Source of the DNA: Sphingomonas cannabina | GTDB lineage: Bacteria; Pseudomonadota; Alphaproteobacteria; Sphingomonadales; Sphingomonadaceae | Length of the DNA stretch: 64,000 bases | Direction: 5' to 3' | NCBI RefSeq assembly: GCF_021391395.1 | Contig: NZ_CP090059.1 | Span: 1,163,001-1,227,000, forward strand | In this document: positions 8,046 to 57,169 of the stretch, piece after piece | How positions within the stretch are numbered: the stretch's first letter is position 1 | How the letters are laid out: each line of letters begins with the position of its first letter | Position numbers and translations under genes: made by a program | The notes under the pieces: model-generated | What the model was told of the DNA's origin: nothing | The model's database searches: none | What the model saw: only the letters and a program-made list of their open reading frames with translations

Positions 8046-8060
8046 CCGCCGAGACCAGTG

Positions 8061-10152: not shown

Positions 10153-10164
10153 GGCGCACCTCCT

Positions 10165-10177
10165 TGCATGCGATGCA
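10165..10177. promoter_or_regulatory. Short palindrome between the acyltransferase and LytTR genes
   Basis: Perfect 5-bp arms 'tgcat-gcg-atgca' lie in the 91-bp divergent intergenic region, immediately upstream of the acyltransferase ribosome site. It could be an operator or an mRNA hairpin. The classical direct-repeat LytTR site was not recognised. Confidence 0.3.
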
Positions 10178-10243
10178 TGATCGCTATGCGGACGGCTGCG
10201 GGGCGGGTATCGCTGAGGGCCGGATGGCGGCTTCACCGGGACG

Positions 10244-42078: not shown

Positions 42079-42153
42079 CTCCGCCCTCTCCCGATTTTGT
42101 TCTGTGGCGCGACATTGTTGCACATTTAGCTACAAGTCAAGCGGGAGTGCTCA

Positions 42154-42298
42154 GATCCTCCTCGGCACGGGGAGGGGGATCGCGACGCGAAGCGTCGTGG
42201 TGGAGGGGGCCATCCTCCCGCCGAATCGGCCGTGGCAGGCCCCCCTCCACCATTCGTCTGCGACGAATGGTCCCCCTCCCCGTGCCGGGGAGGATCTG
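42154..42298. repeat. Intergenic palindromic repeat, family F (copy 2)
   Basis: The ends 'atcctcctcggcacggggag' and 'ctccccgtgccggggaggat' match copy 1 at 17624-17755; an inner hairpin 'ccattcgtctgcgacgaatgg' lies near the right end. It lies between the SDR stop and the TonB receptor promoter. Confidence 0.85.
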
Positions 42299-42329
42299 AT
42301 GAACTAACTATTACAGCAATAGAAAGAGG

Positions 42330-43067
42330 CTAACGCCGGGTGATGCCGGCGCCGCCGTCGATCCGGTAGTCGACGCCGGTGATCCAGGATGCCTCGTCCG
42401 AGCACAGGAAGAGTGCCAGCGACGCCACGTCCTCGGGCGTACCCAGTCGGCCCAGCGGATGCCGGGCGATATTGGCCAGACGCGCGGCCTCCGGGTCGGG
42501 CTGCGCCGCGAATCCGCCCCGCAGCAGCGGCGTGTCGATCGACGCCGGCCGGATCGTGTTGACCCGCACGTTCGCCTCGGCGAGCTCCAGCGCGAGCGTG
42601 CGGGCGAGGCTGTCGAGGCCGGCCTTGGACGCGGCATAGGCGGCGAGGCCCGGCGTCGCGAAGGTCGAGTTGATCGAGGAAACGAACAGGAAAGCGCCGC
42701 GCCGCCGCGCCTGCATCCCCGGGGCGAACACCCGCGCGAGGCGCAGCGCTCCACCGACGTTCACTTCCATCGCCCGCGCGAGGAAATCGCTCGACGTTTC
42801 CAGCGTCGGCTTGCCCTCGGCGAAGGCGGCGGCGTGGACGACGATGCTGGGCGTCAGCCCGGCGGCGGCGATCGCCCCGGCCGCCGCCTCGACCGAGGTG
42901 TCGTCGCCGAGGTCGCAGCGCAGGACCAGGTCGCCCTCGTCCGCCTCGGCGAGATCGAGAGCGACGGTGGTGCAGCCTTCCGCCATGAACCGCCGGACGA
43001 TGGCGCCGCCGATCCCTCCGGCCGCACCGGTGATGACCGCGACATGCCCTTCGAGACGCAGGCTCAT
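42330..43067 (-). CDS. Short-chain dehydrogenase/reductase (candidate sugar 1-dehydrogenase)
   Basis: A 245-residue classical SDR. The cofactor motif is 'VAVITGAAGGIGGAIV' (T-G-x3-G-x-G) and the catalytic stretch is 'FLFVSSINSTFATPGLAAYA' then 'ASKAGLDSLAR', which gives Ser, Tyr and Lys (Y-A-A-S-K). The ending 'DEASWITGVDYRIDGGAGIT' is standard. By context it may oxidise an aldose to its lactone, matching the SMP-30 lactonase in the locus. The ATG overlaps the dgoK stop (ATGA), with 'aggagg' upstream inside dgoK. Confidence 0.87.
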   Translation of the reverse strand: MSLRLEGHVAVITGAAGGIGGAIVRRFMAEGCTTVALDLAEADEGDLVLRCDLGDDTSVEAAAGAIAAAGLTPSIVVHAAAFAEGKPTLETSSDFLARAMEVNVGGALRLARVFAPGMQARRRGAFLFVSSINSTFATPGLAAYAASKAGLDSLARTLALELAEANVRVNTIRPASIDTPLLRGGFAAQPDPEAARLANIARHPLGRLGTPEDVASLALFLCSDEASWITGVDYRIDGGAGITRR

Positions 43068-43984
43068 GCGCCGACCTCCTGTTCCGCGTGGATACGCCGC
43101 AACGTGCTGAACCCTGCGGCCGAAAGCCGCCGGTCGTCCAGCAGCTCGGCGGCCAGGCCGAGCTGCTCGATCGCGGCTACGAACAGCGGGGCCACCTCCG
43201 GCGCGCCGGTGACGAAGCAGGGGAGGCGCCGGGTCGCAGCAAAGGCGAGGTTCTCCCTGACGTCCGCGCCGATCAGCAGGCCCCAGAGATAGGCGCCCGC
43301 ATCCGCTTCCGAGAAGCGACGCGCCAGCACGGCGCTGCGGGCGGAGAAGAGCAGCCGGCCGAGTCCGCCGCCTTCGGCCGCGCGCGCGACGCCCAGCCGG
43401 AACGGCTCCCCGTCCTGCGGCGGGGCCTGCATCAGCGGCGCCAGGATACTGCCCTGGGCGAGGACGCGGTGCAGCTCGACCGTCATCGAGGTGTGGAAGC
43501 GGGCGACGGCACCGTCGGTCAGCTCGATCCACTTGCCGTGCTGCCCCGGCACTGACAGCAGCAGCGCATCGGACCCGATCTCCTGAAGCAGCCCCGCCGC
43601 CGCGACCTCCTCGCCGCGCAGCACGTCGTGATCGTCGAAACGCGAGGTGCAGGACAGACCGGGCAGGATCAGTGCGGGCACCTCGCCGATCCGAACCACG
43701 CGGGCGCCGCGGACGATCGCTTTGGGTGTGGCGGGGCAGGGATGCTGGGGCACCAGCTCCCAGCCGATCTGCGATCCGATCATGCCGGCGAGCCACAGCT
43801 CGGGCGCGGCTTCGGGCCAGCGCGCGCGCAGCTCCGCCAGCCGGCGCGCCATGCCGCCGCGGTCGAGATCGGCGAGCCGGATGTCCTCGCGATGCTCGTC
43901 ATGGATCCGGCCATCGGTACCAAGGAGCCGCGCCGACAGCCGCACCGTGCCCCATTCAACGGCGATGAACGTCCCGGCGGTCAT
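43064..43984 (-). CDS. dgoK: 2-dehydro-3-deoxygalactonokinase
   Basis: A 306-residue DgoK-family sugar kinase that phosphorylates 2-keto-3-deoxygalactonate at O6. Seen: 'FIAVEWGTVRLSARLL' (phosphate-binding start, with E for the usual D), 'AGMIGSQIGWELVPQHPCPA', 'LPGLSCTSRFDDHDVLRGEE', 'LLSVPGQHGKWIELTDGAVA' (carrying the P-G-x-H-x-K-W signature), 'HTSMTVELHRVLAQGSILAP' and 'YLWGLLIGADV'. The ATG overlaps the MFS stop (ATGA). The matching aldolase DgoA is absent from the window. Confidence 0.9.
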   Translation of the reverse strand: MTAGTFIAVEWGTVRLSARLLGTDGRIHDEHREDIRLADLDRGGMARRLAELRARWPEAAPELWLAGMIGSQIGWELVPQHPCPATPKAIVRGARVVRIGEVPALILPGLSCTSRFDDHDVLRGEEVAAAGLLQEIGSDALLLSVPGQHGKWIELTDGAVARFHTSMTVELHRVLAQGSILAPLMQAPPQDGEPFRLGVARAAEGGGLGRLLFSARSAVLARRFSEADAGAYLWGLLIGADVRENLAFAATRRLPCFVTGAPEVAPLFVAAIEQLGLAAELLDDRRLSAAGFSTLRRIHAEQEVGA

Positions 43985-45243
43985 GCCTCCCCCTCCCGTT
44001 CGGCCATCGACCGCCCGGTCGTGGCAAGCCAAGCGGCGATCACCCCGAGCGGATAGGCGACCGCGATGACGAGGAACATCGGCCGATAGGTGATCACCGC
44101 GACGAGCTGCCCCACGAGATAGGTCGATCCGATCGTCACCAGCCCGGTGACGATCGCGCCCGCGCCCATCACCTTGCCGATGTGGCGCGCGGGGAACAGG
44201 TCGACCGGCAGCGCGGTCTGGTTGGTCACCCAGGCGGTATGGCAGAAGGCGACCAGCGCCCCCAGCGTCAGGCTGATCGCGACGCTCGGCTCGAACGCGT
44301 TGAGCGCCCCCAGCGGCGCGACCAGCGCGACCAGCGCCATCGCCAGCACGCGCGCCCGCGCCGGGCGGACGCCGCGCTTGACGAACCAGTCCGAGAGGAC
44401 GCCGCCGGCGACGGAGCCCAGGCCCGCGCTCGCATAGACAACCCAGCTCGTGCGGCCCATCTCCGCCACGGTCAGGCCGCGCTCCTCGACGAGATATTTG
44501 GGGAACCAGAACAGGTAGAAGAACCATACCGGGTTGGTGAGCGAGTTGGCGATGGCGTAGAACCACAGGCCGCGGCTGCGCAGCACGCGCGACCAGCCGG
44601 CCCAGCCGGCACCATCGGCTGGTTCGGGACGAATCTCCGCGCCGGCGACGATATCCTCCGGATAGACGGGCGGCGCCATGCCGGGCCGGTAGATCAGCCG
44701 CCAGCCGACCAGCCAGGCCAGTCCGATCACCCCCGACAGCACGAAGGTCGCCCGCCAGCCGAGCGCTAGCATCAGCGAAGTGATGAGGAACGGCGCCACC
44801 GCCGCGCCGAAATGCGCCGCGGCCGAATAGACGCCGATCGCCAGCGCGCGCTCGCGCTGCGGGAACCATTCACGCACCAGCTTAGGCGAGGCGATCCAGT
44901 TGCCGGCCTCGCCCAGGCCGAGCGCGAACCGGCTCGCACCGAGCTGCCAGATGTTGGCCGCCAACCCCGAGCAGGCGCTGGCGAGCGACCACCAGCCGAT
45001 GAACAGCGCCATGCCCCAGCGTGCGCCGATGCGATCGAGGATGAGCGCCCCCAGCGGGGCGCCAAGCATGTAGGCGACCAGGAAGGCGTTGACGACGGCG
45101 GCATAGCCGGGATCGTCGATCCTGAGGTCGGCCTGGACCGATCCCGCCATCAGCGCCAGCGTCTGCCGGTCGAGATAGTTGAGCAACGCCGCGGCGGCGA
45201 GCATGGCACCGATCGCCCAGCGGTAACGCACCGGCATGGTCAT
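43981..45243 (-). CDS. MFS transporter, ACS (hexuronate/galactonate) type
   Basis: A 420-residue, twelve-helix major facilitator protein. The first helix has 'ALLNYLDRQTLAL', the N-Y-x-D-R signature of anion:cation symporters such as galactonate and hexuronate transporters. The second loop is 'GALILDRIGARWGMALFIGW', and 'GLGEAGNWIASPKLVREWFP' is the helix 4 motif. It probably imports a sugar acid across the inner membrane. ATG 45243 or the ATG two codons later may start it. It heads the MFS-dgoK-SDR run and is divergent from the SMP-30 gene. Confidence 0.9.
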   Translation of the reverse strand: MTMPVRYRWAIGAMLAAAALLNYLDRQTLALMAGSVQADLRIDDPGYAAVVNAFLVAYMLGAPLGALILDRIGARWGMALFIGWWSLASACSGLAANIWQLGASRFALGLGEAGNWIASPKLVREWFPQRERALAIGVYSAAAHFGAAVAPFLITSLMLALGWRATFVLSGVIGLAWLVGWRLIYRPGMAPPVYPEDIVAGAEIRPEPADGAGWAGWSRVLRSRGLWFYAIANSLTNPVWFFYLFWFPKYLVEERGLTVAEMGRTSWVVYASAGLGSVAGGVLSDWFVKRGVRPARARVLAMALVALVAPLGALNAFEPSVAISLTLGALVAFCHTAWVTNQTALPVDLFPARHIGKVMGAGAIVTGLVTIGSTYLVGQLVAVITYRPMFLVIAVAYPLGVIAAWLATTGRSMAEREGEA

Positions 45244-45318
45244 GCTCTCGGGCTGCTCCCTCCCCGCCGCCGATCACTATCGTGCGGCACCCGGCCTTGC
45301 TATGCTAATGTATCCGTT

Positions 45319-45329
45319 ATAGCAACATT
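45319..45329. promoter_or_regulatory. Possible IclR operator between MFS and SMP-30 genes
   Basis: 'tagcaacatt' (45320-45329) is identical to 36715-36724 upstream of the dehydratase. It sits in the 90-bp divergent region, with nearby 'gctat(g)' and 'atagc' arms at 45300-45323 making a larger imperfect dyad. Shared sequence suggests one regulator for the locus; this is inference. Confidence 0.45.
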
Positions 45330-45333
45330 AAAT

Positions 45334-46245
45334 ATGACCTTCGCTTCGTCTCCTCTCGACGACATGCCGCGCCAGCCGGAACGGATATGGCGCGTCGGCG
45401 CCGGCCTAGCCGAATGTCCGGTGTGGCTGGAGGACCGGCGGCTGCTGGCATGGGTCGATATCGTCGGACCCAGCTGTCACCTGCTCGACCCCTCGACCGG
45501 CGAAACCTGGATGTTCAAGGTGCCGGCGAAGATCGGATCGGCCGCGCCTGCGCCGGGGGGAGCCATGCTGCTCGCGCTGGAGGATGGCCTATGGCGCCGC
45601 CATGCTGATGGCCGGTTGGAGCGTTGCGCCTCGCCGGACATGACCGGGGTGCATTTCAACGACGGCAAGTGCGATCCGGCCGGCCGGTTCTGGGTTGGGT
45701 CGCGCTCCAGCGATGGATCGCCCGCAAAGGGCAAGCTGTTCCGGTTCGATCCCGACGGCAGGCTATACGAGATGGCGAGCGGCTTCGACGTGCCAAACGG
45801 GCTCGGTTGGAGCCCGGCGGGCGACGCCTTCTATCTCGTCGATACGGTTCCGCGGCTGCTCTATCGCTACGATTATGACCTGGCATCGGGCGCGATCGGG
45901 CGGCGGCGCGTCATCCAGGATTTCGCCGGCCAGGCAGGCAAGCCGGACGGCCTCGCGGTCGATGCCGCCGGCAATCTCTGGTGCGCGATGTGGGACGGCG
46001 GCGGCATCCTCGTGTTGTCGCCGGAAGGACTGCTGCTGGATCGATTGCCGACGCCATGCCCGCGCCCGACCAGCTGCGCCTTCGGTGGGGGAGAGCGGAT
46101 GACCTTGTTCGTCACATCCGCGTCCTATGGTCTCGATCCGGCGGATTTCGGATTCGGGGATTCCGGCAGCATCTTCGCCTTCCGGAGCCCGATTCCAGGC
46201 ACGCCGGTCGCGTCCATGGCCGGGTCAGGGGGAAAGCCAACATGA
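45334..46245 (+). CDS. SMP-30/gluconolactonase family lactonase
   Basis: A 303-residue six-bladed beta-propeller. Metal ligands match the family: Glu in 'GAGLAECPVW', Asn in 'GFDVPNGLGWS' and Asp in 'GKPDGLAVDAAGNLW'. 'VHFNDGKCDPAGRFWVGSRS' is the family core block. It hydrolyses an aldonolactone to the aldonate, the step between the SDR and the dehydratase. The start ATG at 45334 lacks a Shine-Dalgarno, so translation may be leaderless or begin at ATG 45364, which is nearer the conserved start. Confidence 0.9.
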   Translation: MTFASSPLDDMPRQPERIWRVGAGLAECPVWLEDRRLLAWVDIVGPSCHLLDPSTGETWMFKVPAKIGSAAPAPGGAMLLALEDGLWRRHADGRLERCASPDMTGVHFNDGKCDPAGRFWVGSRSSDGSPAKGKLFRFDPDGRLYEMASGFDVPNGLGWSPAGDAFYLVDTVPRLLYRYDYDLASGAIGRRRVIQDFAGQAGKPDGLAVDAAGNLWCAMWDGGGILVLSPEGLLLDRLPTPCPRPTSCAFGGGERMTLFVTSASYGLDPADFGFGDSGSIFAFRSPIPGTPVASMAGSGGKPT

Positions 46246-46336
46246 CAAAGATGTAAGACTGCCATCAGCTTGGCTCCATCTTCCGTGCGATAGGGCGGGC
46301 GCGTTCCCACGATGCTCACAGGAGCCTTTCGGACCG

Positions 46337-49300
46337 ATGCGCACGCCTGTCTTCTTCGACCCCACCGGCCGCCGCAGCCGTTGGTCCAGGCGCGTGCTCG
46401 CCGTGCTGATCATGGTCGTGCTCGTCAGCGCGCTGGCGTTCGCGACCACTCTGGTCGCCGTTCCCCGCCAGCGCGATCTCGCGCTGCCGTTGCCGCAGCC
46501 TCATGCGGATCGGCTGCGCGGCACGCCGCCTCGCCATGGTCTCTCGGCCTGGCTTCCGGCCAAGACCGCGAAGAACCCCCACAGCCCGCTCAGCGTCGGC
46601 TTCTACGTGCCCGACGACGATGCGAGCATCGCCTCGCTGCGGCGTCATGTCGGTGCGCTCGACTGGGTCGTCCCGGCGCTGGTGTCGGTGTCCGGCCCGG
46701 ACCACAGGGTCTCGGTCGAGCGCGACCCGCAGTTCGACCGCATGATCGCCGCGATGCCGAACCCGCCCAAGGTGCTGCCGATGGTCCAGAATTTCGGCAA
46801 CGAAAAATGGGACGGTGCCGGTGCGGCGGCGCTGCTCCACGACCCCGCGCAACGCAAGGCGCTCGCGATGCGGCTTGGCACGCTTGTCGCGGCTCGCCGC
46901 GAAGCCGGGCTGGTGATGGACTTCGAGGCCCTGCCGCGCACTGCGATGGGAGACTATCTCCGTTTCCTCCACCAGCTCAGGAGCGCCTTGCCCACCGGCG
47001 CGCAGATCGCGGTCACCGCTCCCGCCGAGAACCAGGACTGGCCGCTCGCGGCGTTCGCCCGCGTCACCGACCGGCTGATCTTCATGGCCTATGACCAGCA
47101 TTGGCAGGGCGGCGAGCCCGGGCCGATCGCGCCGCAAGGCTGGTTCGTCCATCAGGTCGGGACGGCGTTGCGCACCGTCGGTCCCGACAAGCTGGTCGTC
47201 GCGCTCGGCAGCTATGCCTATGACTGGCACGGCGACGACACCGATGCGCTGTCGATCGAGGAGGCGTGGCTCGCGGCGCATGACAGCACGGCGCCAGTCG
47301 GCTTCGATGCCTCCAGCGGCAATGCCGGCTTCGCCTATGACGAAGGCGGAAAGCATCACAGCATCTGGATGCTCGATGCCGCGACCAGCTGGAACCAGCT
47401 CCAGGCGCTCAAGCGGCTCGGTATCGACGATGTCGCGCTGTGGCGGCTGGGCACCGAGGACCCGGGGTTCTGGGCCGATCTCGGCGCCTTCCGCACCGGC
47501 GGCGTGCCCGATCTGTCGACTCCCCGCTCGCTGCTCAGCACGGATGTGGAGGGATCGGGCGAGATCCTGCGCATCACAGCGACGCCCGGCGACGGCCACC
47601 GCACCGTGACGCGAGACGCCCAGGGCATGATCCGCGACGAGCGCTACGACGCGCTGCCGACGCCCTATGTCGTCCAGCGCGTCGGCGGCGGCGATCCCAA
47701 GCTGCTCGCGCTGACCTTCGACGACGGCCCGGACGCGACCTGGACGCCCAAGATCCTCGCCGAGCTCGAGGCGGCGAAGGTGCCGGCGACTTTCTTCGTG
47801 ATCGGCGAGAACGCGCTCGTCCATCCGGCGCTGCTCGGCCGCATCCTCGCCGATGGCGACGAGATCGGCAACCACAGCTACACCCACCCCAATCTCGCGG
47901 CGGTGAGCGCGACGCAGACGCGGCTCGAGCTCAACGCGACGCAGCGGCTGGTCCAGGCCTATACCGGGCGCAGCATGACGTTGTTCCGCGCGCCCTATTT
48001 CGGCGACGCCGAACCGACCACCGCCGACGAGCTCGGCCCGGCGCTGCAGGCACAGCAGGCCGGCTACACCGTCGTCGGGCTGCACGTGGATCCCAACGAC
48101 TGGCAGCGTCCGGGCACTGATGCGATCGTCGATCAGGTCATCCGCCAGGTCCACGCCGCCACGCCGACCAGTTCCGGCAACGTCATCCTGCTGCACGATG
48201 GCGGCGGCGACCGCGCGCAGACCGTCGCCGCGCTTCCGCGGATCATCGCCGCACTCCAGGGCGAGGGATACCGCTTCGTCCCCGCCTCCCAGCTTGCCGG
48301 CATCTCGCCAGCGCAGGCGATGCCCAGGGTCGCGAGCGCCGATCTGTGGGCGGTGCGGATCGACGTCGCGATCTTCGTCGCGCTCGCCGCGCTGGCGGCG
48401 CTGCTCGCCTGGATCTTCTACGTCGCCATCACGCTCGGGATCGCCCGCGCGGTGGTGATGGCCGGGCTCGCCTGGTTCCAGAGCCGCCGCGATCGCGCCC
48501 GGCCGCCCGCGTTCGAGCCGAGCGTGTCGGTGATCATCCCCGCCTATAACGAGGAGCGCGTGATCGCCGCCTCGGTCGCGCGCGTGCTGGCGAGCGACTA
48601 TCCCGCGCTGCAGGTGATCGTCGCCGACGACGGATCGAAAGACCGCACCAGCGCCGTGGTCGCCGCTGCCTTCGCCGGCGATCCGCGCGTCACGCTGCTC
48701 ACGCTCGAGAACGGCGGCAAGGCGGCGGCGCTCAACCGCGCGCTGCTCCAGGCGACGGGCGAGGTGATCATCGCGCTCGACGCCGACACGCAGTTCGAGC
48801 CACTGACGATCCGCCTCCTCGCGCGCTGGTTCGCCGATCCGAGGCTCGGCGCGGTCGCCGGCGACGCGCGGGTGGGCAACCGCGTCAACCTCGTCACCCG
48901 CTGGCAGGCGGTCGAATATATCACCGCGCAGAACCTGGAGCGCCGCGCGCTCGCCGGATTCGACGCGATGACGGTGGTCCCCGGCGCGGTCGGCGCGTGG
49001 CGGCGGGCGGCGCTCGACACGGTCGGCGGCTATCCCGAGGACACGCTGGCCGAGGACCAGGACCTCACCATCGCCATCCAGCGTGCCGGCTGGCGCGTGA
49101 CTTATGATCCCGAGGCGGTCGCCTGGACCGAGGCGCCGGAAAGCTTCCGGGCGCTCGCCAAGCAGCGTTACCGCTGGGCGTTCGGCACGCTGCAATGCCT
49201 GTGGAAGCACCGCGCGATCCTGCGGGCGCGCAAGCCGTCCGGGCTGGCGCTGGTCGGCCTGCCGCAGGCATGGCTGTTCCAGATCGCCTTCGCCGCGATC

Positions 49301-49645
49301 TCGCCGCTGATCGACCTGACGCTGATCGTCTCGATCATCGGCACGGTGCTGCGTGTGATCGAGCACGGCTGGGCGCAGACCCGCGGCGACGTCGGCGCCA
49401 TGGGCCTCTACTGGCTGATCTTCACCGCGGTCGATGTCGCGTGCGGCTGGATCGCCTATGCGCTCGACGGCAAGGGCGTGCGTTACCCCGCCCACCTGCT
49501 CGTCGCCCAGCGGCTGGTCTATCGCCAGATCATGTATTGGGTGGTGCTCCGCGCGATTGCCTCGGCGATCGGCGGGTGGGTGGTCGGCTGGGGCAAGCTC
49601 GAGCGCACCGGCCGCGTCTCCGCCGCGGCGCCCGCCGGCGCATGA
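46337..49645 (+). CDS. Fused GH18-like glycosidase, polysaccharide deacetylase and GT2 glycosyltransferase
   Basis: A 1102-residue membrane protein joining three activities. After an N-terminal anchor (about 17-40) comes a GH18-like barrel (about 80-390), with 'GLVMDFEALP' as the D-x-E catalytic motif. Next is a NodB deacetylase domain (about 455-650: 'LALTFDDGPDATWTPKILAE', 'DEIGNHSYTHPN', 'FRAPYFGDAEP'). A membrane segment near 675 is followed by a GT2 domain (about 730-950: 'SVIIPAYNEERVIAASVARV', 'IVADDGSKDRT', 'ALDADTQF', 'AEDQDLTI', 'QRYRW'). More helices end the protein. The GT2 part is PgaC/IcaA-like and the deacetylase-glycosidase part PgaB-like, so it may make and modify a beta-linked amino-sugar polymer. 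Product unknown. Confidence 0.87.
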   Translation: MRTPVFFDPTGRRSRWSRRVLAVLIMVVLVSALAFATTLVAVPRQRDLALPLPQPHADRLRGTPPRHGLSAWLPAKTAKNPHSPLSVGFYVPDDDASIASLRRHVGALDWVVPALVSVSGPDHRVSVERDPQFDRMIAAMPNPPKVLPMVQNFGNEKWDGAGAAALLHDPAQRKALAMRLGTLVAARREAGLVMDFEALPRTAMGDYLRFLHQLRSALPTGAQIAVTAPAENQDWPLAAFARVTDRLIFMAYDQHWQGGEPGPIAPQGWFVHQVGTALRTVGPDKLVVALGSYAYDWHGDDTDALSIEEAWLAAHDSTAPVGFDASSGNAGFAYDEGGKHHSIWMLDAATSWNQLQALKRLGIDDVALWRLGTEDPGFWADLGAFRTGGVPDLSTPRSLLSTDVEGSGEILRITATPGDGHRTVTRDAQGMIRDERYDALPTPYVVQRVGGGDPKLLALTFDDGPDATWTPKILAELEAAKVPATFFVIGENALVHPALLGRILADGDEIGNHSYTHPNLAAVSATQTRLELNATQRLVQAYTGRSMTLFRAPYFGDAEPTTADELGPALQAQQAGYTVVGLHVDPNDWQRPGTDAIVDQVIRQVHAATPTSSGNVILLHDGGGDRAQTVAALPRIIAALQGEGYRFVPASQLAGISPAQAMPRVASADLWAVRIDVAIFVALAALAALLAWIFYVAITLGIARAVVMAGLAWFQSRRDRARPPAFEPSVSVIIPAYNEERVIAASVARVLASDYPALQVIVADDGSKDRTSAVVAAAFAGDPRVTLLTLENGGKAAALNRALLQATGEVIIALDADTQFEPLTIRLLARWFADPRLGAVAGDARVGNRVNLVTRWQAVEYITAQNLERRALAGFDAMTVVPGAVGAWRRAALDTVGGYPEDTLAEDQDLTIAIQRAGWRVTYDPEAVAWTEAPESFRALAKQRYRWAFGTLQCLWKHRAILRARKPSGLALVGLPQAWLFQIAFAAISPLIDLTLIVSIIGTVLRVIEHGWAQTRGDVGAMGLYWLIFTAVDVACGWIAYALDGKGVRYPAHLLVAQRLVYRQIMYWVVLRAIASAIGGWVVGWGKLERTGRVSAAAPAGA

Positions 49646-50484
49646 GGGTGCCGCGATCGATCCCGGCGCTGCTGATCGCGTTGGGCGCCCCTGCGGTCCC
49701 GGCGTGGGCTCAGGATGTGCCGGACCTTTCCGCTGACCGGATCACCATCGGCGTCGGTCCGGCCTTCGTACCGCGCTATGTGGGATCGGACCGGATGACG
49801 GTCGTCCCCGGCATAGCGGCGCAGGGGCAGGTGTCGCACCGGTCGTTCGAGACCGCCGGCACTTCGCTCAGCGTCGACCTGATCCCCGATGCGGACAAGC
49901 CCGGCTGGAAGTTCCAGGCCGGTCCGATGTTCAACCTGCGGCTCGACCGTACGGCGCGCATCGCCGAGCCGCAGGTCGCCGCGCTCGGCACCCGCAAGAC
50001 CGCTTGGGAGCCCGGCGCCTGGATCGGCCTTCAGCGCACCGGGGTCATGACCAGCCCCTATGATTCGCTGTCGGCGAGCATCTCCTGGCAACATGACGTG
50101 AGCGGCGCCTATGACGGCTCCGTCGTCAGTCCCGCGATCAGCTACGACACGCCGTTATCGCATCACGATTACGTCAGCCTCTCGGCCGGCGCCGATCATG
50201 TCGGCAAGCGCTTCGGCCGATATTATTACGACATCGACGACGCCGGCAGTGCCGCGAGCGGTCTCGGCGTCTATGACGGCGCGGACAAAGCGGGGTGGAA
50301 GGACTGGAATCTCGACCTGCTGACGATGCACATGGTTCGCGGTGAGCTGACCCGCGGCGTCGGCGTGTTCGGTACGCTGGGCTATTCGCGTCTCGTCGGC
50401 GCCCATGCGCGCTCGCCGATCGTCGCCGATGTCGGCAGCGCGAACCAGTGGAGCGGCGCGATCGGCGTCAGCATCACCTTGTGA
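49642..50484 (+). CDS. MipA/OmpV family outer membrane protein
   Basis: A 280-residue outer membrane protein. The signal peptide ends 'APAVPAWAQ', then comes a beta-barrel of the MipA/OmpV family ('ITIGVGPAFVPRYVGSDRMT', 'AISYDTPLSHHDYVSLSAGA', 'YDGADKAGWKDWNLDLLTMH', 'GAIGVSITL'). MipA was described as a scaffolding protein for murein synthesis; OmpV-like members act as porins or adhesins. The ATG overlaps the stop of the polysaccharide protein by 4 bp, so the two are coupled. It may provide the outer membrane exit or anchor for the polymer (inference). Confidence 0.87.
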   Translation: MRVPRSIPALLIALGAPAVPAWAQDVPDLSADRITIGVGPAFVPRYVGSDRMTVVPGIAAQGQVSHRSFETAGTSLSVDLIPDADKPGWKFQAGPMFNLRLDRTARIAEPQVAALGTRKTAWEPGAWIGLQRTGVMTSPYDSLSASISWQHDVSGAYDGSVVSPAISYDTPLSHHDYVSLSAGADHVGKRFGRYYYDIDDAGSAASGLGVYDGADKAGWKDWNLDLLTMHMVRGELTRGVGVFGTLGYSRLVGAHARSPIVADVGSANQWSGAIGVSITL

Positions 50485-50519
50485 GGACCCCAATTTGTGA
50501 ATCGGGACACGGAAAAAGC

Positions 50520-51200
50520 ATGAGCCTGAACCTCCTGCTGGTCGAGGACGATGCGACCCTTGCCGCGATGCTGTCGGACGACCTGCGCGGCTATGATCAT
50601 CGCGTGACGATCGTCTCCGATGGGGGAGAAGCGCTCGCCGCCGCCGGGCGCGATCAGTTCGACGCGGTGGTGCTCGACCGGATGCTTCCGTCGATCGACG
50701 GCGTTTCCGTCCTCCAGCGGATGCGGCGCGAGGGGCTGACGATGCCGGTGATCATGCTGACCGCGCTCGGCCGGCTGGCCGAGAAGGTCGAGGGGCTGGA
50801 GGCGGGCGCGGACGACTATGTGGTGAAGCCGGTGGACGCCGCAGAGCTCAACGCGCGGCTGCACGCACTGCATCGTGCGCGCCAGTGGATCACCACCGAT
50901 ACCGACACGATCCGCGCGGGCGACGTCGTCGCCAGCCCCTCGCAGCACCGGGCCTGGCGCGCGGGCAAGGCGCTGGACCTCTCGAAGACCGAATTCAGCC
51001 TGTTGTGCGAATTCGTCCGCAACGCCGATGCGGTGCTGACCCGGGCGATGCTCTACGAACGGGTGTGGGGATTCGATTTCGAGCCGACCACCAACGTCGT
51101 CGACGCGTTCGTGCGGCGCCTGCGGATCAAGCTGATGGCGGACGGAGGATCGGACCTCATCGCGGCGGTGCGCGGCGTCGGCTATGTGATGCGCGGTTAG
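50520..51200 (+). CDS. OmpR/PhoB-type response regulator
   Basis: A 226-residue two-domain regulator. The receiver has the acidic pair 'LLVEDDATLA', phospho-acceptor Asp53 ('AVVLDRMLPSIDG'), 'VIMLTALG' and Lys in 'DDYVVKPVDA'. The C-terminal winged helix carries 'LDLSKTEFSLLCEFVRNADA', 'LTRAMLYERVWGFDFEPTTN' and 'AVRGVGYVMR'. It starts 35 bp after the mipA stop with a weak ribosome site. Its kinase gene follows 4 bp later. The pair probably controls this operon or related envelope genes. Confidence 0.93.
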   Translation: MSLNLLLVEDDATLAAMLSDDLRGYDHRVTIVSDGGEALAAAGRDQFDAVVLDRMLPSIDGVSVLQRMRREGLTMPVIMLTALGRLAEKVEGLEAGADDYVVKPVDAAELNARLHALHRARQWITTDTDTIRAGDVVASPSQHRAWRAGKALDLSKTEFSLLCEFVRNADAVLTRAMLYERVWGFDFEPTTNVVDAFVRRLRIKLMADGGSDLIAAVRGVGYVMRG

Positions 51201-51204
51201 GGTC

Positions 51205-52548
51205 GTGTCGCGGCTGCGTTCGCTGAGGGCGCTGACGCTCCTCTTCGTCCTCATCTTCCTGGCGGCGACCGTGGCTACCGGATTCGCCACCTATTTCGTC
51301 ACCCATGCGACCATCGCCCGCCTGGTCGACCAGCGAATCATGGCGGAAAGCAGTGCCGTTTCGGGCGGAACCTTCCCCGCCGACCGCGCCGCGGTAATCG
51401 CCAGCATCGCCGACTATTCGCGCCGGCGCGACACCGGCGACCTCGGGTTCATGCTGACCGACGCCGCCGGGCGCAGGATCGCCGGTAACATCGCGTTCGA
51501 CCGGCCGCTGCCGCTCGGTTTCTCGACGGTGGGAAAGGCCGACAGGATCAAGGGCCTCACCCACGGCCGCGCGCTGGTCCGGCGCATCGGCAACGGCCTG
51601 ACGCTGACGACGGTCGCCGAAACCGAGCCGATCGACAATTACGACGGGGAACGCATCCGCATCTATCTGCTCGGCTTCGGTTCGATCGTTCTCATCGTCG
51701 TCGGCGGCGCGATCCTGTTCAGCGTGATCGTCCGCCGCCGCATTATCGCCCTGCACCGCACGGCCGATGCCATCATCGACGGCGACATGCAGCGGCGCGT
51801 GCCCGTCGACGGATCGGGAAGCGAGTTCGACGAGCAGGCGCAGGCGTTCAACCGGATGCTTGACCGGATTTCCGGGCTGATGGGCGAGATCCGCAATGTC
51901 TCCAACGACATCGCCCACGACCTCAGGACGCCGCTCGCGCGCCTGCGCGGGCGGCTGGCCGCCATCGCGCGTCAGGCCGAGAGCGAGCAGGTGCGTGACG
52001 GCCTCGAGGATGCGATCGCGCAGAGCGACGCGATCCTGGCGATGTTCGCGGCGGTGCTGCGCATCGCCGAGGTGGAAGGAGGCGATCGCCGTGCAGCCTT
52101 CGAGACGCTTGACGTCGGCGACCTCGCGGCCGCGATCGGAACGGCGATGCAGCCGGCGGCGGAGGAGGAGCGCCATCTGCTGGTGGTCGGCGAATGCGAG
52201 CCCGCGCCGATCCAAGGGGATCGCCAGCTGCTCAATCACGCGCTGGTCAACCTGATCGAAAACGCCCTGCGGCATACGCCCGCCGGCTCGCGGATCGAGA
52301 TATCGGTGGCGCGATCGGGATCGGATGCGATCCTGACGGTCCGGGACGACGGGCCCGGCATCGCGCCGGAGCAGCGCGCGCTGGCGCTGCGGCGCTTCGG
52401 CCGGCTGGACAAGAGCCGCGCCCGGGGCGGCCACGGGCTCGGGCTGCCGCTGGTGGATGCCATCGCGCGGCTGCACCGGGGCGGCCTGACCCTGGAATCG
52501 GCGGATCCCGGCCTCAGGGCCGTTCTCACGCTGCCGCTGGCTGCATGA
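51205..52548 (+). CDS. Sensor histidine kinase of the two-component system
   Basis: A 447-residue membrane kinase with TM1 at about 8-30 and a short periplasmic sensor of about 120 residues with no recognised fold. TM2 at about 152-175 ('LLGFGSIVLIVVGGAILFSV') and a HAMP domain follow. The HisKA motif is 'NDIAHDLRTPLARLRGRLAA' with phospho-acceptor His238. The ATPase domain has an N-box 'LNHALVNLIENALRHTPAG', a D-x-G box 'VRDDGPGIAPEQRAL' and a G-box 'GGHGLGLPLV'. Start is GTG 51205, 4 bp after the regulator stop. The ligand is unknown. Confidence 0.92.
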   Translation: MSRLRSLRALTLLFVLIFLAATVATGFATYFVTHATIARLVDQRIMAESSAVSGGTFPADRAAVIASIADYSRRRDTGDLGFMLTDAAGRRIAGNIAFDRPLPLGFSTVGKADRIKGLTHGRALVRRIGNGLTLTTVAETEPIDNYDGERIRIYLLGFGSIVLIVVGGAILFSVIVRRRIIALHRTADAIIDGDMQRRVPVDGSGSEFDEQAQAFNRMLDRISGLMGEIRNVSNDIAHDLRTPLARLRGRLAAIARQAESEQVRDGLEDAIAQSDAILAMFAAVLRIAEVEGGDRRAAFETLDVGDLAAAIGTAMQPAAEEERHLLVVGECEPAPIQGDRQLLNHALVNLIENALRHTPAGSRIEISVARSGSDAILTVRDDGPGIAPEQRALALRRFGRLDKSRARGGHGLGLPLVDAIARLHRGGLTLESADPGLRAVLTLPLAA

Positions 52549-52617: not shown

Positions 52618-55140
52618 TCAGAACCTCAGCGACGCCTCGGCGCCGAAAGTCCGCGGCGCGTTGAAGTTGCCATAGTCGCCAAGGACGCTGGCGATGCTGC
52701 CCGCGGTCGCGCCGGGAGTCGTCGGAGCGCCGGGCAGGCTGTTCGACGGGTCGCGGCGATAGACATATTGCTCGTCGAACAGGTTGCGGGCCCAGATGCT
52801 GAACGTCACCTTCTGGCCGGTATCCGCCAGCTGGATATCGGCGAGCGACAGGCGTCCGTTGACGATGAACGACGGATCGTTGCGGGTGGCGAACTGGTCG
52901 AAGGTCTGGGTCGACTGCGCGTAGTTCGCGTCGAGGTGCAGCGCGATCGCCGTGTCGCCGCCGCCCACCGGCACCCGATAGTCGATCGATCCGCTGGCCG
53001 CGTTGCGCGGCGTGAAGACGATGTAGAAGTTCTGGTACACGTTGGTCGACGTGATCAGCACCGGCGGGATACGCGTGTAGGTATAAGCATAGGATCCGGT
53101 CAGGGTCAGGCCGTCGACCGGCTGCACCGTCAGGTCCGCCTCGATGCCGCGGATCTTGGTGGTTCCCGGCGCATTGATGGTCACGAGGTTGTTGAAATTG
53201 CCGGTCGCGGTCGGCTGGATCGAGCTGATGTCGACCTGGCTGTCCTTGCGGTCCATGATGTAGCCCGCCAGGTTGAACCGCGCGCGGTGATCCCAGAAGT
53301 CGCTCTTGAGGCCGATCTCATAGGACTTCACGTCCTCGGGATCGAACGCCTGGTAGTTCGCGGTGCGCGAGCTGGCGCCGCCGGCGCGGTAGCCGGTCGC
53401 ATATTTGGCATAGAGGTGCAGCGAATCGCTCGCGTCATAGGCGAGCGTCACCATCGGGTTGAAGCGGTTCCAGGTCTCGTCCAACGGCTGATAGCCGTTC
53501 TGCGCCGCCGCTGTCGGATTGGTATCGTAGTTGATGTTGCGCGAATAGTGCAGCACGCCGCGCTTCTTGTCGCGGGTGTAGCGGCCGCCGACGGTCAGGT
53601 GGAGCGCGTCGGTCGCGTTCCAGGTGAGCTGGCCGTAGGCGGCATAGCTCTTGGACCAGACTTCCGACGCGCGGTCGATCGAGCGGCAGCCCGGCTGCGA
53701 CCCGAACCCGCCCGAACCGGTGCACGGATCGAGGATGACGTAGCGCGATCCGACGACCGCGCCGGTGGCGTCGGTGATCGCGACGATGCCGTTGGAGTTC
53801 GGCGTCGCGGCGTCATCGCTGACATGCTCGTTGAAGTAGTAGAGGCCGGCGACATAATCGATCGACCCCAGCGAACCGACTGCCTGGAACTCCTGGCTGA
53901 ACTGATGCTGGTCGAGGTCGGCGAGGCTGTAGCGGCTGAACGCGCAAGGCGCGGCCGCGGTGCAGGCGGCGGTCAGCGCGATGGCGGGAACGCGGTGCGC
54001 GCCGCCCGAATTGTCCCACTGCGTCGCCGAGACACCGCGCCATGCGGTGATCGAGCGGAGCTCGAGCTCGGACCCCAGATTCCACTTGAGGATGTTGGTG
54101 AACCCGTGGGTCTTGTCCACGCTCGGCTGCTGCGGCACGCCGATGTCGGCGGTCTTCATGCGCGAGTCGCCGTTGACGACGACGCCGGGCAGCAGCGGCT
54201 TCACCGCGCCGGTCAGGCTGGTGTAGTTGGTGCCGGGCAGGAAGCAGTTCGGCACCGCCGACTGCGCACCCGCGACGCACCCGTTGGGATTATAGTTCAG
54301 CAGCTGGCTGTAGAAGGGCGTGTTGGCGTCGTAGCCGACGTCGTAGGAGAAATCATCCGTGACCCCGTCGATCGGCTTCCATCGCGCGGCGGCGCGGAAG
54401 CCGTGGCGGTCGTAATAGTTCCAGCCGGTCTGACCGGCGAGCGGATCCTTGGTGGTCGCGTCCTGATGCTGGATGACGCCGTCCAGCTTGACCGAGACGC
54501 CGGCGAACTCCGGCAGGTCGAGGTGGAGCTCGGCATTGTAGCCGCCGTAATTGCTGATGCCCGCGGTCGCGCGGCCCTCGAACTTGCCGCTCGGCGCCTT
54601 GGTGACCATGCTGAGCGCGCCGCCTTCGGTATTACGGCCGAACAGCGTGCCCTGCGGCCCCTTCAGCACCTCGATCCGCTCGAGGTCGAACAGCGCCGCG
54701 TTGAGGCCGTGCTGGCGGCCGAGGTAGACGCCGTCGATATAGATGCCGACGCCCTGCTCGCGCGCGGGCTGGTTGGCGTCGAGCGGCACGATGCCGCGGA
54801 TGCCGACGGTGAGCGCGCTCTGCCGGGCCTCGAAGGTCGCGACCCGCAGACTGGGAACCCCGCCGTCGGCGAGGTCGTACAGGCTCTGGACGTGGCGGTC
54901 CTTGATCGTGTCGGCGCTGACCACGGAGATCGCGATCGGCGTCTTCTGGAGGTTCGTCTCGGTCTTCGTCGCGGTGACGACGATGTCCTCCAGTCCCTGT
55001 CCGGACGTCTGGGCCGCGTCGCCGGCGGCATCCGGCGCAACCTTTGACGACTGACCCTGCGCGAGCGCGGGCGATGCCAATAGTGCCAACGCGGTGCTTC
55101 CGAGCAGATAGGGTAGGCGGATACGGTTTCGGCAGGACAC
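52618..55140 (-). CDS. TonB-dependent receptor
   Basis: An 840-residue outer membrane receptor with a signal peptide ('LLGSTALALLASPALAQ'), TonB-box-like 'LEDIVVTATKTETNLQKTPI', plug ('LTVGIRGIVPLDANQPAREQ', 'IDGVYLGRQHGLNAALFDLE', 'RIEVLKGPQGTLFGRNTEGG') and a barrel ending 'TFGAEASLRF'. The 'TlFGRNTxGG' type plug and 'DGVYLGR' occur in the large iron/xenobiotic group of Sphingomonad receptors; the ligand cannot be assigned. The start is a GTG at 55140 with 'gggag' 7 bp upstream. A 27-bp palindrome lies 59 bp upstream. Confidence 0.92.
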   Translation of the reverse strand: MSCRNRIRLPYLLGSTALALLASPALAQGQSSKVAPDAAGDAAQTSGQGLEDIVVTATKTETNLQKTPIAISVVSADTIKDRHVQSLYDLADGGVPSLRVATFEARQSALTVGIRGIVPLDANQPAREQGVGIYIDGVYLGRQHGLNAALFDLERIEVLKGPQGTLFGRNTEGGALSMVTKAPSGKFEGRATAGISNYGGYNAELHLDLPEFAGVSVKLDGVIQHQDATTKDPLAGQTGWNYYDRHGFRAAARWKPIDGVTDDFSYDVGYDANTPFYSQLLNYNPNGCVAGAQSAVPNCFLPGTNYTSLTGAVKPLLPGVVVNGDSRMKTADIGVPQQPSVDKTHGFTNILKWNLGSELELRSITAWRGVSATQWDNSGGAHRVPAIALTAACTAAAPCAFSRYSLADLDQHQFSQEFQAVGSLGSIDYVAGLYYFNEHVSDDAATPNSNGIVAITDATGAVVGSRYVILDPCTGSGGFGSQPGCRSIDRASEVWSKSYAAYGQLTWNATDALHLTVGGRYTRDKKRGVLHYSRNINYDTNPTAAAQNGYQPLDETWNRFNPMVTLAYDASDSLHLYAKYATGYRAGGASSRTANYQAFDPEDVKSYEIGLKSDFWDHRARFNLAGYIMDRKDSQVDISSIQPTATGNFNNLVTINAPGTTKIRGIEADLTVQPVDGLTLTGSYAYTYTRIPPVLITSTNVYQNFYIVFTPRNAASGSIDYRVPVGGGDTAIALHLDANYAQSTQTFDQFATRNDPSFIVNGRLSLADIQLADTGQKVTFSIWARNLFDEQYVYRRDPSNSLPGAPTTPGATAGSIASVLGDYGNFNAPRTFGAEASLRF

Positions 55141-55807: not shown

Positions 55808-57169
55808 TCAATGCTCGCGGAAGGACGACCAGAAGCTGTTGAGCAGGGGCTCGATCATGTAATCGAGCGCAGTCCGCTTGCGCAGGGGAATCAGGATCTG
55901 CGCGGGCATCCCGGCGCGCAGGACGAAATCGTCGCCCCGCACGCGATCGATCAGGCGGAGCTGCTCATAGGGCACCACGATCTCGCCGGTGAAATAGCTC
56001 TGGCCCGACTTTTCGTCGGTGAAGCTGTCGGCGGAAAGCCGCGTCAGGCGGCCTTCGAGATTGGGCAGGCTGCGTTCGTGCAGCCCCGAGAACTTAACCA
56101 GCGCGCGCTGCCCGACCGAGAGGTCGTCGGCATCGTCCGGCGCAATGCGGGCCTGGACGACGAGCGGGGTGCGTTCGGGGACGATGTCCATCAGCTTCTG
56201 CCCCGGCGCGATCACACCGCCCGGCGTGAACACCGACAGGCCGACCACCGCGCCGGTCGCCGGCGCGCGGATGGCGGTACGCTCGAGCTGGTCGCGCGCC
56301 GCCATCCATTTCGGCAGGATTTCGCCAAGGCTGGTCTCGACCTCGCGAAGGTCGGAGGCGGTGCGCTCGCGGAAGCTGCGTTCGGCTTCGAGCACCTGCA
56401 GCTCGCTCTCGCGCGCAGCGCCGCGGGTCTGGGCGACGCTGGCGCTGTACTGGCCGCCCTGGCCCTGCAGCTCGGCGCGCGCACGCTCGAGTTCGCGCAT
56501 CCGCGTCTGCGAGACGAAACCCTTCTCGGCGACCGGACGCAGGGCGGTGATCTGCTCGTCGATGAGGCGCAGCTGTTCGCGCGCCGAGGCCGCTTGCTCG
56601 CCATAGCCGCGGCCCTGCTCGCCCGACTGGGCGACGCGCTGGCCGAGCGCTCCGCGCTGCGCGGCGAGCACGGCGGTGCGCGCGGTAAGTTCGGTCTGTT
56701 GGAGGCGCAACGCGGTCGCCGCCTCGGCCTTGTCCTCGGGCGAGAGCGACGCGAACTGAGGTGGCGGCGCGATCCGCGACTGGCCGAGCTGCTCGGCCTC
56801 GAGCCGCGCGCGTTGCGCGAGCAGCCGGATCGACTGCGACGCGAGTGCGCGTTCCTGTGCACGGACCTCGGGCGCGGCGAGCTCGATCAGCAGTTGGCCG
56901 CGCTCGACGCGCTGACCTTCCCGGACATGGATTCTGCCGACGACGCCGCCGTCGCGGTGCTGGACCGATTGCCGCTGGCCGGAGACGACGAGTGATCCGG
57001 GTGCATAGGCCGCAGCATCGAGGCGGACGAAGGCAGCCCAGCCGAGGAACAGCACGAAGAACAGCGCCGCGATCACCAGGCCGGTGCGGATCTCGCCGCG
57101 CGGGTCCGCCACCGCCGTCGAGGCGGGCGCGACCGACGTCGCGGGCGGAAGGAGCAGTGCCTCGCTCAT
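55808..57169 (-). CDS. Type I secretion membrane fusion protein (HlyD/PrtE family)
   Basis: A 453-residue periplasmic adaptor linking an ABC exporter to an outer membrane channel. It has one membrane span (about 30-50, 'VIAALFFVLFLGWAAFVRLD'). The lipoyl half 'VSGQRQSVQHRDGGVVGRIH' and 'VREGQRVERGQLLIEL' is followed by a long coiled-coil region (about 110-290) and the second lipoyl and beta-barrel parts ('TAIRAPATGAVVGLSVFTPG', 'VPERTPLVVQARIAP', 'VRAGMPAQ'-like 'LRAGMPAQILIPLRKRTALD'). The ATG overlaps the stop of the ABC gene (ATGA). It belongs to the same operon as the exporter. Confidence 0.93.
   Translation of the reverse strand: MSEALLLPPATSVAPASTAVADPRGEIRTGLVIAALFFVLFLGWAAFVRLDAAAYAPGSLVVSGQRQSVQHRDGGVVGRIHVREGQRVERGQLLIELAAPEVRAQERALASQSIRLLAQRARLEAEQLGQSRIAPPPQFASLSPEDKAEAATALRLQQTELTARTAVLAAQRGALGQRVAQSGEQGRGYGEQAASAREQLRLIDEQITALRPVAEKGFVSQTRMRELERARAELQGQGGQYSASVAQTRGAARESELQVLEAERSFRERTASDLREVETSLGEILPKWMAARDQLERTAIRAPATGAVVGLSVFTPGGVIAPGQKLMDIVPERTPLVVQARIAPDDADDLSVGQRALVKFSGLHERSLPNLEGRLTRLSADSFTDEKSGQSYFTGEIVVPYEQLRLIDRVRGDDFVLRAGMPAQILIPLRKRTALDYMIEPLLNSFWSSFREH

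What the first reader, a model, noticed from the sequence alone, without database searches (positions are those of the whole stretch)
46337..52548. Three-in-one polysaccharide protein with a coupled MipA protein and its own two-component system
A single 1102-residue protein carries glycosidase-like, NodB deacetylase and GT2 synthase domains, that is, PgaB-like and PgaC-like functions fused. A MipA/OmpV barrel overlaps its stop, and a two-component system follows within 35 bp. The topology would put the hydrolase and deacetylase in the periplasm and the synthase in the inner membrane. This could be a compact system that makes, modifies, trims and exports a beta-linked amino sugar polymer under its own sensor. 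No PgaA-like porin or PgaD is seen; MipA could stand in.
Basis: partly seen in the sequence, partly recalled or inferred. Interest (0 to 1): 0.7.

Follow-up and report, generated by a model that had tools for sequence, protein, structure and literature searches.

The report
Single-chain aminoglycan synthase in envelope regulon
One bacterial gene encodes an enzyme that probably builds, de-acetylates and trims an amino-sugar chain; it is common in Sphingomonas relatives, where it often sits with genes that add positive charge to the membrane, while the sensor genes beside it here seem to serve a different neighbour.

Summary
One 1102-residue protein carries a membrane anchor, a GH18 hydrolase, a NodB/CE4 deacetylase and a processive GT2 synthase, with catalytic motifs conserved over 58 aligned sequences. 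A MipA gene overlaps its stop by 4 bp; a response regulator and a kinase gene follow after gaps of 35 and 4 bp.

The fusion is widespread (111 of 151 same-genus genomes, this one included). It is not PgaB plus PgaC: the hydrolase is GH18, the domain order is reversed, and no PgaA reaches its cut-off.

The downstream two-component pair is not its own. In 13 of 13 ortholog loci examined (of 64 genomes) the pair lies convergent with a TonB-dependent receptor, as here at 52618-55140.

Relatives show another partnership: MprF, AcvB/VirJ, DUF2147, a PDZ-RR-HK operon and sometimes this MipA. Their promoters are enriched in a candidate operator, ATGAC-N6-GTCAT; this window keeps a degenerate copy before the fusion. 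I propose an inner-membrane machine making a partly de-N-acetylated, cationic GlcNAc chain as one arm of an envelope-charge response, with aminoacyl-PG as the other. Enzymology, product and regulation are inferred; nothing was assayed.

The parts
46242..46257 (+). Candidate operator (ATGAC AAAGAT GTAAG; two mismatches to ATGAC-N6-GTCAT), ending 79 bp before the fusion start; it overlaps the stop codon of the upstream gene
   Evidence: same variant in 21 of 80 relatives' fusion upstream regions (10 of 33 representatives) vs 29 of 4000 random 300-bp stretches
46337..49645 (+). Trifunctional fusion protein, 1102 aa (TM anchor, GH18, CE4/NodB, TM, GT2, C-terminal helices)
46376..46456 (+). N-terminal transmembrane helix (residues 14-40), arginine-rich cytoplasmic side
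   Evidence: hydropathy; AlphaFold2 helix
46580..47506 (+). GH18 TIM barrel (residues 82-390), invariant D195, E197, Y252, D253, W369
47693..48295 (+). CE4/NodB polysaccharide deacetylase domain (residues 453-653)
48335..48487 (+). Transmembrane helix region (residues 667-717)
48518..49207 (+). GT2 synthase domain (residues 728-957), DDG, DAD, EDQD and QRYRW motifs
49238..49576 (+). C-terminal helices of the synthase (residues 968-1080); with the GT2 domain aligned to hyaluronan synthase
49642..50484 (+). MipA/OmpV family outer-membrane barrel, start overlaps the fusion stop (ATGA)
50520..51200 (+). OmpR-type response regulator; conserved partner is the TonB receptor, not the fusion
51205..52548 (+). 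Sensor histidine kinase (GTG start) of the same pair
52618..55140 (-). TonB-dependent receptor, convergent with the kinase gene: the pair's conserved neighbour
45421..46245 (+). SMP-30/gluconolactonase gene upstream of the fusion (neighbour, not thought to be part of the system)

Best explanation
The fusion is a self-contained inner-membrane amino-sugar polymer machine. Its cytoplasmic GT2 domain extends a beta-linked N-acetylglucosamine chain from UDP-GlcNAc and threads it through its own membrane helices. The periplasmic CE4 domain removes some acetyl groups and the periplasmic GH18 domain trims the chain. The product is a partly cationic chitosan- or dPNAG-like glycan. In sphingomonads it belongs to an envelope-charge regulon with MprF (aminoacyl-PG synthase), AcvB/VirJ (its hydrolase), DUF2147, DUF1003, a PDZ-RR-HK operon and, in some lineages, a MipA barrel; the genes share an ATGAC-N6-GTCAT operator. 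In this genome the fusion has left the MprF cluster (still present 460 kb away), kept a degenerate operator and MipA, and landed before an unrelated two-component/TonB-receptor pair. Shown here: domains, conserved motifs, predicted folds, gene linkage and motif enrichment. Inferred: substrate, linkage of the glycan, direction of export, operator function, co-regulation, the history of the locus.
Against: The fusion also occurs without MprF near it: 53 of 85 genomes that have both keep them more than 10 kb apart or on other contigs, 12 of 12 loci from outside the genus lack MprF within the fetched stretch (L189, L193 and L194 gave few or no gene calls, but a tblastn over all 12 found none), and on the 44 labelled tree rows the MprF, VirJ and kinase linkages change at least 10, 12 and 6 times, so the linkage is labile. 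The linked two-component system was not found in this genome at E<=1e-70, so what would bind the operator here is unknown. The operator was found by looking at part of the same regions it was then counted in, sequences are related, and <=1-mismatch matches are common genome-wide (126, against 11 for the reversed pattern); in L115 two of four such sites lie outside the cluster promoters. 2x2 tables ignore phylogeny. No dedicated exporter was identified. Product never observed.
Confidence: 0.58

Rival explanations
1. One reading: a compact PNAG-type system of fusion plus MipA exporter under its own downstream two-component system, one operon.
Against: The two-component pair lies convergent with a TonB receptor in 13 of 13 loci examined and is within 10 kb of a fusion in 3 of 64 genomes. 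MipA directly downstream in 0 of 80 relatives, 74 of which have at least 900 bp after the fusion. MipA family members are in 149 of 151 genus genomes, so presence alone says nothing.
Confidence: 0.13
2. Peptidoglycan or cell-wall remodelling enzyme: GH18 (SleL/YaaH-like) and CE4 (PdaB/PgdA-like) act on peptidoglycan and the GT2 adds a GlcNAc-containing decoration, not a free polymer.
For: Nearest solved GH18 relatives by sequence include spore cortex-lytic SleL and YdhD; nearest CE4 models are PdaB, NodB and PgdA. MipA in E. coli is a murein-hydrolase scaffold (recalled).
Against: GT2 has the QxxRW motif and a hyaluronan-synthase-like membrane part, typical of processive synthases. MatB, with the same CE4 kinship, makes PNAG (PMC5972031, passages). 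GH18 chitinases match the fold as well as SleL does.
Confidence: 0.15
3. The product is a short chito- or gluco-oligosaccharide (NodC/NodB-like) kept in the periplasm or on a lipid, rather than an exported polymer.
For: NodB and NodC models score 138 and 127 bits, below cut-off; a chain-cutting GH18 is built in; no PgaA-like exporter over cut-off.
Against: Best GT2 model is PgaC/IcaA (184.5 bits, below cut-off) and the fold match is to a polymer synthase.
Confidence: 0.14

Closest known systems
MatB of Streptomyces (with MatA; PMC5972031, passages read)
   Same: One chain with a cytoplasmic GT2 and an extracytoplasmic CE4 domain joined by a TM helix; best GT2 kin is PgaC and best CE4 kin are PgdA/NodB-type enzymes, as here. 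Makes PNAG.
   Different: The passages read name only GT2 and CE4 domains in MatB. Here GH18-CE4-GT2 in a Gram-negative, and no search for MatA was made.
PgaB/PgaC of Gram-negative pgaABCD (PMC5933820, abstract and outline; PMC7112194, passages and section 15)
   Same: Same three kinds of activity: synthase, deacetylase, hydrolase. PMC7112194 already reports Gram-negative pgaB-like clades fused to GT domains, in operons without detectable pgaA and pgaD.
   Different: PgaB is periplasmic, CE4 first then GH153. Here the order is GH18-CE4-GT2 in one membrane protein; the hydrolase is GH18. The clades in PMC7112194 are said to lack the hydrolase and to carry N-terminal GT fusions; whether any of them is this family was not checked.
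SleL/YaaH/YdhD GH18 enzymes (PDB 4s3j, 4s3k, 3cz8)
   Different: Those are LysM-bearing or secreted spore enzymes (recalled); here the domain is tethered to a synthase.
LpiA/AcvB Lys-PG system of Agrobacterium (PMC13197417, PMC13135905, abstracts and outlines)
   Same: MprF-type LPG synthase domain (PF09924, one representative tested) beside a VirJ-family hydrolase (PF06057, two representatives tested) in the relatives' clusters.
   Different: In Agrobacterium the operon is lpiA-acvB; the abstracts mention no glycan synthase. Here the cluster also holds the fusion, DUF2147, DUF1003 and PDZ-RR-HK.

Membership tests
PgaABCD PNAG system | PgaA outer-membrane TPR porin (TIGR03939) in the genome | tested here: not met
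   best 27.3 bits vs cut-off 366.65
PgaABCD PNAG system | PgaC/IcaA equivalog score (TIGR03937) | tested here: not met
   184.5 bits (protein) and 187.5 bits (genome) vs cut-off 422.3; still the best-scoring NCBIfam model of the chain
PgaABCD PNAG system | PgaB order: CE4 then GH153 | tested here: not met
   order is GH18 82-390 then CE4 453-653; no PgaB model line for the CE4 part at E<=1
PgaABCD PNAG system | PgaD co-synthase | not tested
   no search made
GH18 | Pfam PF00704 over cut-off | tested here: met
   36.0 vs 29.6 bits for the domain alone; not listed at E<=0.001 for the full chain
GH18 | Catalytic D-x-E and conserved active-site Y-D and W | tested here: met
   D195, E197, Y252, D253, W369 invariant in 58 sequences; the assignment of these motifs is recalled
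CE4/NodB deacetylase | PF01522 over cut-off and the metal/catalytic motifs | tested here: met
   105.3 vs 23.1 bits; D462, H513, H517, R551, D588, W589, H620, D621 invariant, D463 in at least 90%; motif roles recalled
Processive GT2 synthase | D, DxD, (E/T)D and QxxRW motifs plus membrane-embedded C-terminus | tested here: met
MatB-type CE4-GT2 fusion | CE4 and GT2 joined by a TM helix | tested here: met
   (predictions)
MatB-type CE4-GT2 fusion | Makes PNAG with MatA | not testable with these tools
   needs product analysis; MatA not searched
MipA/OmpV | PF06629 over cut-off | tested here: met
   100.4 vs 24.2 bits
KdgM/NanC oligosaccharide porins | Sequence kinship | tested here: inconclusive
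Linked PDZ-RR-HK system of the relatives | Window kinase is an ortholog of the kinase linked to the fusion elsewhere | tested here: not met
   this genome has no match at E<=1e-70 to the linked kinase (11 of 43 candidates scored), while window-type kinases form their own set with the TonB receptor

The most novel reading that the evidence does not exclude
Sphingomonads run a two-arm cationic envelope shield under one operator: MprF/AcvB tune aminoacyl-PG in the inner membrane while the three-in-one enzyme lays down a partly de-acetylated glucosamine chain in the periplasm or at the surface. The chain is made by one protein without a dedicated polymer exporter; GH18 trims it short enough to pass a small MipA barrel of NanC/KdgM-like fold where one is present. 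This would be a new way of making and releasing a bacterial aminoglycan and, as far as I know, the first tie between aminoacyl-phospholipid and aminoglycan control.
Probability: 0.2. Interest if true: 0.78.

Novelty: new variant of a known kind. Interest (0 to 1): 0.5.

Why it matters
The GH18-CE4-GT2 chain is in 111 of 151 same-genus genomes and, by the names listed, also in Rhodanobacter, Dyella, Kaistia, Devosia and others. The listings of my nine paper searches showed no study of it (open-licence papers only, long listings capped). If the regulon is right, a testable partner set (MprF, AcvB/VirJ, a PDZ-linked sensor) and a concrete operator replace a guess about PNAG, and the question of how Gram-negative bacteria without PgaA export or retain such glycans (raised in PMC7112194) gets a simple one-gene model.

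Tried and rejected
Rejected: downstream two-component system as the fusion's regulator. Rejected: conserved fusion-MipA adjacency (0 of 80 loci, 6 of them with under 900 bp after the fusion; 19 further loci L005-L023 gave no MipA match either, but hold at most 1.5 kb flanks). In G042 and G009 a window-type RR-HK-TonB set lies about 8 kb from a second, diverged fusion copy; the intervening genes matched none of my cluster references, so I treat it as chance.

Led nowhere: promoter/terminator scan, no excess over shuffles (0 promoters vs 0.6, 2 terminators vs 2.1). EmbRS of Rubrivivax (PMC3684757, passages): separate nodB and GT2 genes listed, no fusion seen. Direct hexamer repeats at period 10/11 in 56 promoter regions: none in more than 4. 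Operator before window-type RR genes: one mismatch in 4 of 13, four mismatches in the other 9, so no shared site. An absence of PgaB among the fold matches is not evidence. Considered and dropped without a test: a role in GlcN-bearing glycosphingolipids of sphingomonads, because an inverting GT2 would give a beta link (recalled).

Rows dropped before counts: four fusion fragment rows under 400 bits (G062:C315, G088:C1:222989, G085:C118, G084:C44); window-kinase rows under 300 bits; six linked-kinase rows under 300 bits (G096, G085, G141, a second G037 copy, G004, G100). Of these G096 lies 870 bp from its fusion and G100 has no fusion.

Paper searches used. Listings seen; read further only PMC7112194 (passages and section 15), PMC5972031 and PMC3684757 (passages), PMC13197417, PMC5933820 and PMC13135905 (abstract and outline).

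Full report
OBSERVATION. The four reading frames are as reported. The fusion ends in GCATGA, whose ATGA is also the MipA start; gaps to the response regulator and kinase genes are 35 and 4 bp. The window is bases 1163001-1227000 of a 4.39 Mb single-contig genome. The named relatives of the fusion are nearly all Sphingomonas, Novosphingobium and Sphingobium records, so the host is a sphingomonad by inference.

WHAT IT IS NOT. It is not PgaB joined to PgaC in the strict sense. PgaB is CE4 followed by GH153 (PMC5933820, abstract). Here a GH18 precedes the CE4, the CE4 part resembles PdaB, NodB and PgdA, and the PgaC/IcaA model scores 184.5 of a required 422.3 bits. The GH18 and CE4 kin known to me act on beta-1,4 GlcNAc (recalled), while the best GT2 model is that of a beta-1,6 polymer synthase, so the linkage of the product cannot be read from sequence. 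MatB shows the same mixed kinship and makes PNAG (PMC5972031, passages).

HOW COMMON. 111 of 151 same-genus genomes have it, this one included; in my list 20 of them have two copies, 18 of these with a second copy 51-54% identical. In a phylum draw 9 of 398 and in a class draw 8 of 337 genomes, this one included in both, have it at E<=1e-80; only two candidates per genome were scored there, so these are lower bounds. The protein searches returned 3193 proteins at E<=0.001 and 5868 at E<=1e-50; 120 of each were listed, with names from Sphingomonas, Novosphingobium and Sphingobium in the first and Rhodanobacter, Dyella, Frateuria, Fulvimonas, Kaistia and Devosia in the second. Source names run from 'glycosyltransferase' and 'polysaccharide deacetylase' to composites that already list YaaH, deacetylase and GT2. 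So the architecture is ordinary, widespread and already annotated. PMC7112194 reported Gram-negative pgaB-like proteins fused to GT domains in operons without pgaA and pgaD, though described as lacking the hydrolase.

THE TWO-COMPONENT SYSTEM. Window-type kinases above 300 bits occur in 64 of 151 genomes (lower rows left out). Only 3 lie within 10 kb of a fusion, one being this window. In the 11 best ortholog loci after the window's own and in G042 and G009, 13 of 13, the RR-HK pair is convergent with a TonB-dependent receptor 47-77% identical to the one at 52618-55140. The other 50 of the 64 were not looked at. The pair's conserved partner is that receptor.

MIPA. The family is in 149 of 151 genus genomes, usually in one to four copies, so presence is no signal. 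The window's MipA has only four homologues of 58-59% identity in 150 other genomes. Three of them (G029, G032, G099) lie in MprF/linked-sensor clusters. L060 and L063, read in full, are by their coordinates the same loci as G032 and G029; they run VirJ, fusion, HK, RR, PDZ (not called in L060), DUF1003, MipA, small TM, DUF2147, MprF. In G099 the cluster has MipA but no fusion beside it (L115). The fourth (G016) is not in such a cluster (L152). The model (pLDDT 90.5) is a barrel nearest NanC and KdgM, so a small sugar channel is conceivable.

THE REAL NEIGHBOURHOOD. In 80 named loci (63 with full 10-kb flanks) the commonest neighbours are an OmpR-type RR (66), a kinase (65), MprF (44), VirJ (43), PDZ proteins (38) and DUF2147 (33); over 34 groups at 85% fusion identity 29, 28, 22, 21, 14 and 19. 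Families were confirmed on representatives only. The RR and kinase groups were built by single linkage at 40% identity and may be broad. A specific search with one linked kinase found 51 genomes above 300 bits; all 51 carry the fusion, 43 within 10 kb. MprF occurs once in each of the 90 genomes that have it: 85 of 111 fusion-bearing genomes have it against 5 of 40 without (Fisher p 9e-13, phylogeny ignored), and it is within 10 kb of a fusion in 32 of those 85. Named loci and genus genomes overlap. On a 48-row quick tree the window's fusion nests with L026, L027 and L042 (support 96); L026 and L042 have kinase, MprF and VirJ beside it, L027 has none of them, though few genes were called there. 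The linkages change at least 10 (MprF), 12 (VirJ) and 6 (kinase) times on that tree. The window's layout is therefore most simply a derived one, in a labile setting. In this genome VirJ-DUF2147-MprF sit together at 746 kb without the fusion. Outside the genus none of 12 loci showed MprF nearby; one (G497) had a VirJ relative about 8 kb off and one (G447, same family) an RR-HK pair next to the fusion.

CANDIDATE OPERATOR. Promoter regions of cluster genes are enriched in an inverted repeat, ATGAC-N6-GTCAT. With at most one mismatch it is in 15 of 78 cluster regions against 2 of 177 other intergenic regions in one locus per group (33 representatives, p 5e-7); in all 80 loci 43 of 176 against 6 of 397. 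Within 300 bp before the fusion, at most two mismatches are found in 56 of 80 loci and 19 of 33 representatives, against 13.7% of random stretches and 8.2% of shuffles. The motif was noticed in part of the same data, so these counts are not independent. Partly independent checks: the window's own fusion has ATGACAAAGATGTAAG at 46242-46257, a variant seen in 21 of 80 relatives and 29 of 4000 random stretches; this genome's MprF operon has a one-mismatch site upstream, the only one in an 18 kb stretch; the separated MprF operon of G104 has a one-mismatch site; the MipA/DUF1003 region has an exact match in L063 and two one-mismatch sites in G099. Against: 126 one-mismatch sites lie in this genome (control pattern 11), two of four such sites in L115 are outside the cluster promoters, the window site overlaps the stop codon of the upstream gene, and the linked regulator was not found in this genome.

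MECHANISM AND VERDICT. I conclude that the fusion makes a partly de-acetylated GlcNAc chain in three coupled steps in one membrane protein, and that its biological setting is envelope charge control together with aminoacyl-PG turnover. AcvB and VirJ are experimentally Lys-PG hydrolases and lpiA-acvB is an operon in Agrobacterium (PMC13197417 and PMC13135905, abstracts). A paper search for any three of MprF, VirJ, polysaccharide deacetylase, Sphingomonas and DUF2147 gave none. The specific finding of this window, fusion plus MipA plus its own two-component system, is half right: the three-in-one enzyme is real, MipA is plausibly of the same regulon, the sensor pair is not.

Noticed in passing
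58981-63615, 57166-58893, 55808-57169 (minus strand): A 1544-residue protein with RTX repeats, Calx-beta, lamin-tail and cadherin-like domains followed by an ABC transporter and an HlyD-type adaptor: a probable type I secretion set with its large surface or secreted substrate.
   Followed up: no
39364-46245: A sugar-acid utilisation block: TonB receptor, SDR, 2-keto-3-deoxy-galactonokinase, MFS transporter (minus strand) and an SMP-30 lactonase on the plus strand that ends 91 bp before the fusion.
   Followed up: partly
L143, L144 (G042, G009) and other two-copy genomes: 20 of 111 fusion-bearing genus genomes have two copies in my list; in 18 the second is full-length or nearly so and 51-54% identical to the window's; its role is unknown.
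   Followed up: partly
G000, around the fusion and MprF promoters: Operator-like sites persist although the PDZ-linked RR-HK pair that accompanies them in relatives was not found in this genome; which regulator uses them is unexplained.
   Followed up: partly
L153 (G141), 7698-11419: The fusion's stop overlaps a DUF2147 gene directly, another tight coupling of two members of the proposed regulon.
   Followed up: no
L145 and L146 (G088): In this one-contig genome MprF and VirJ are each called in two pieces and the fusion matches in two overlapping pieces, probably assembly frameshifts.
   Followed up: no
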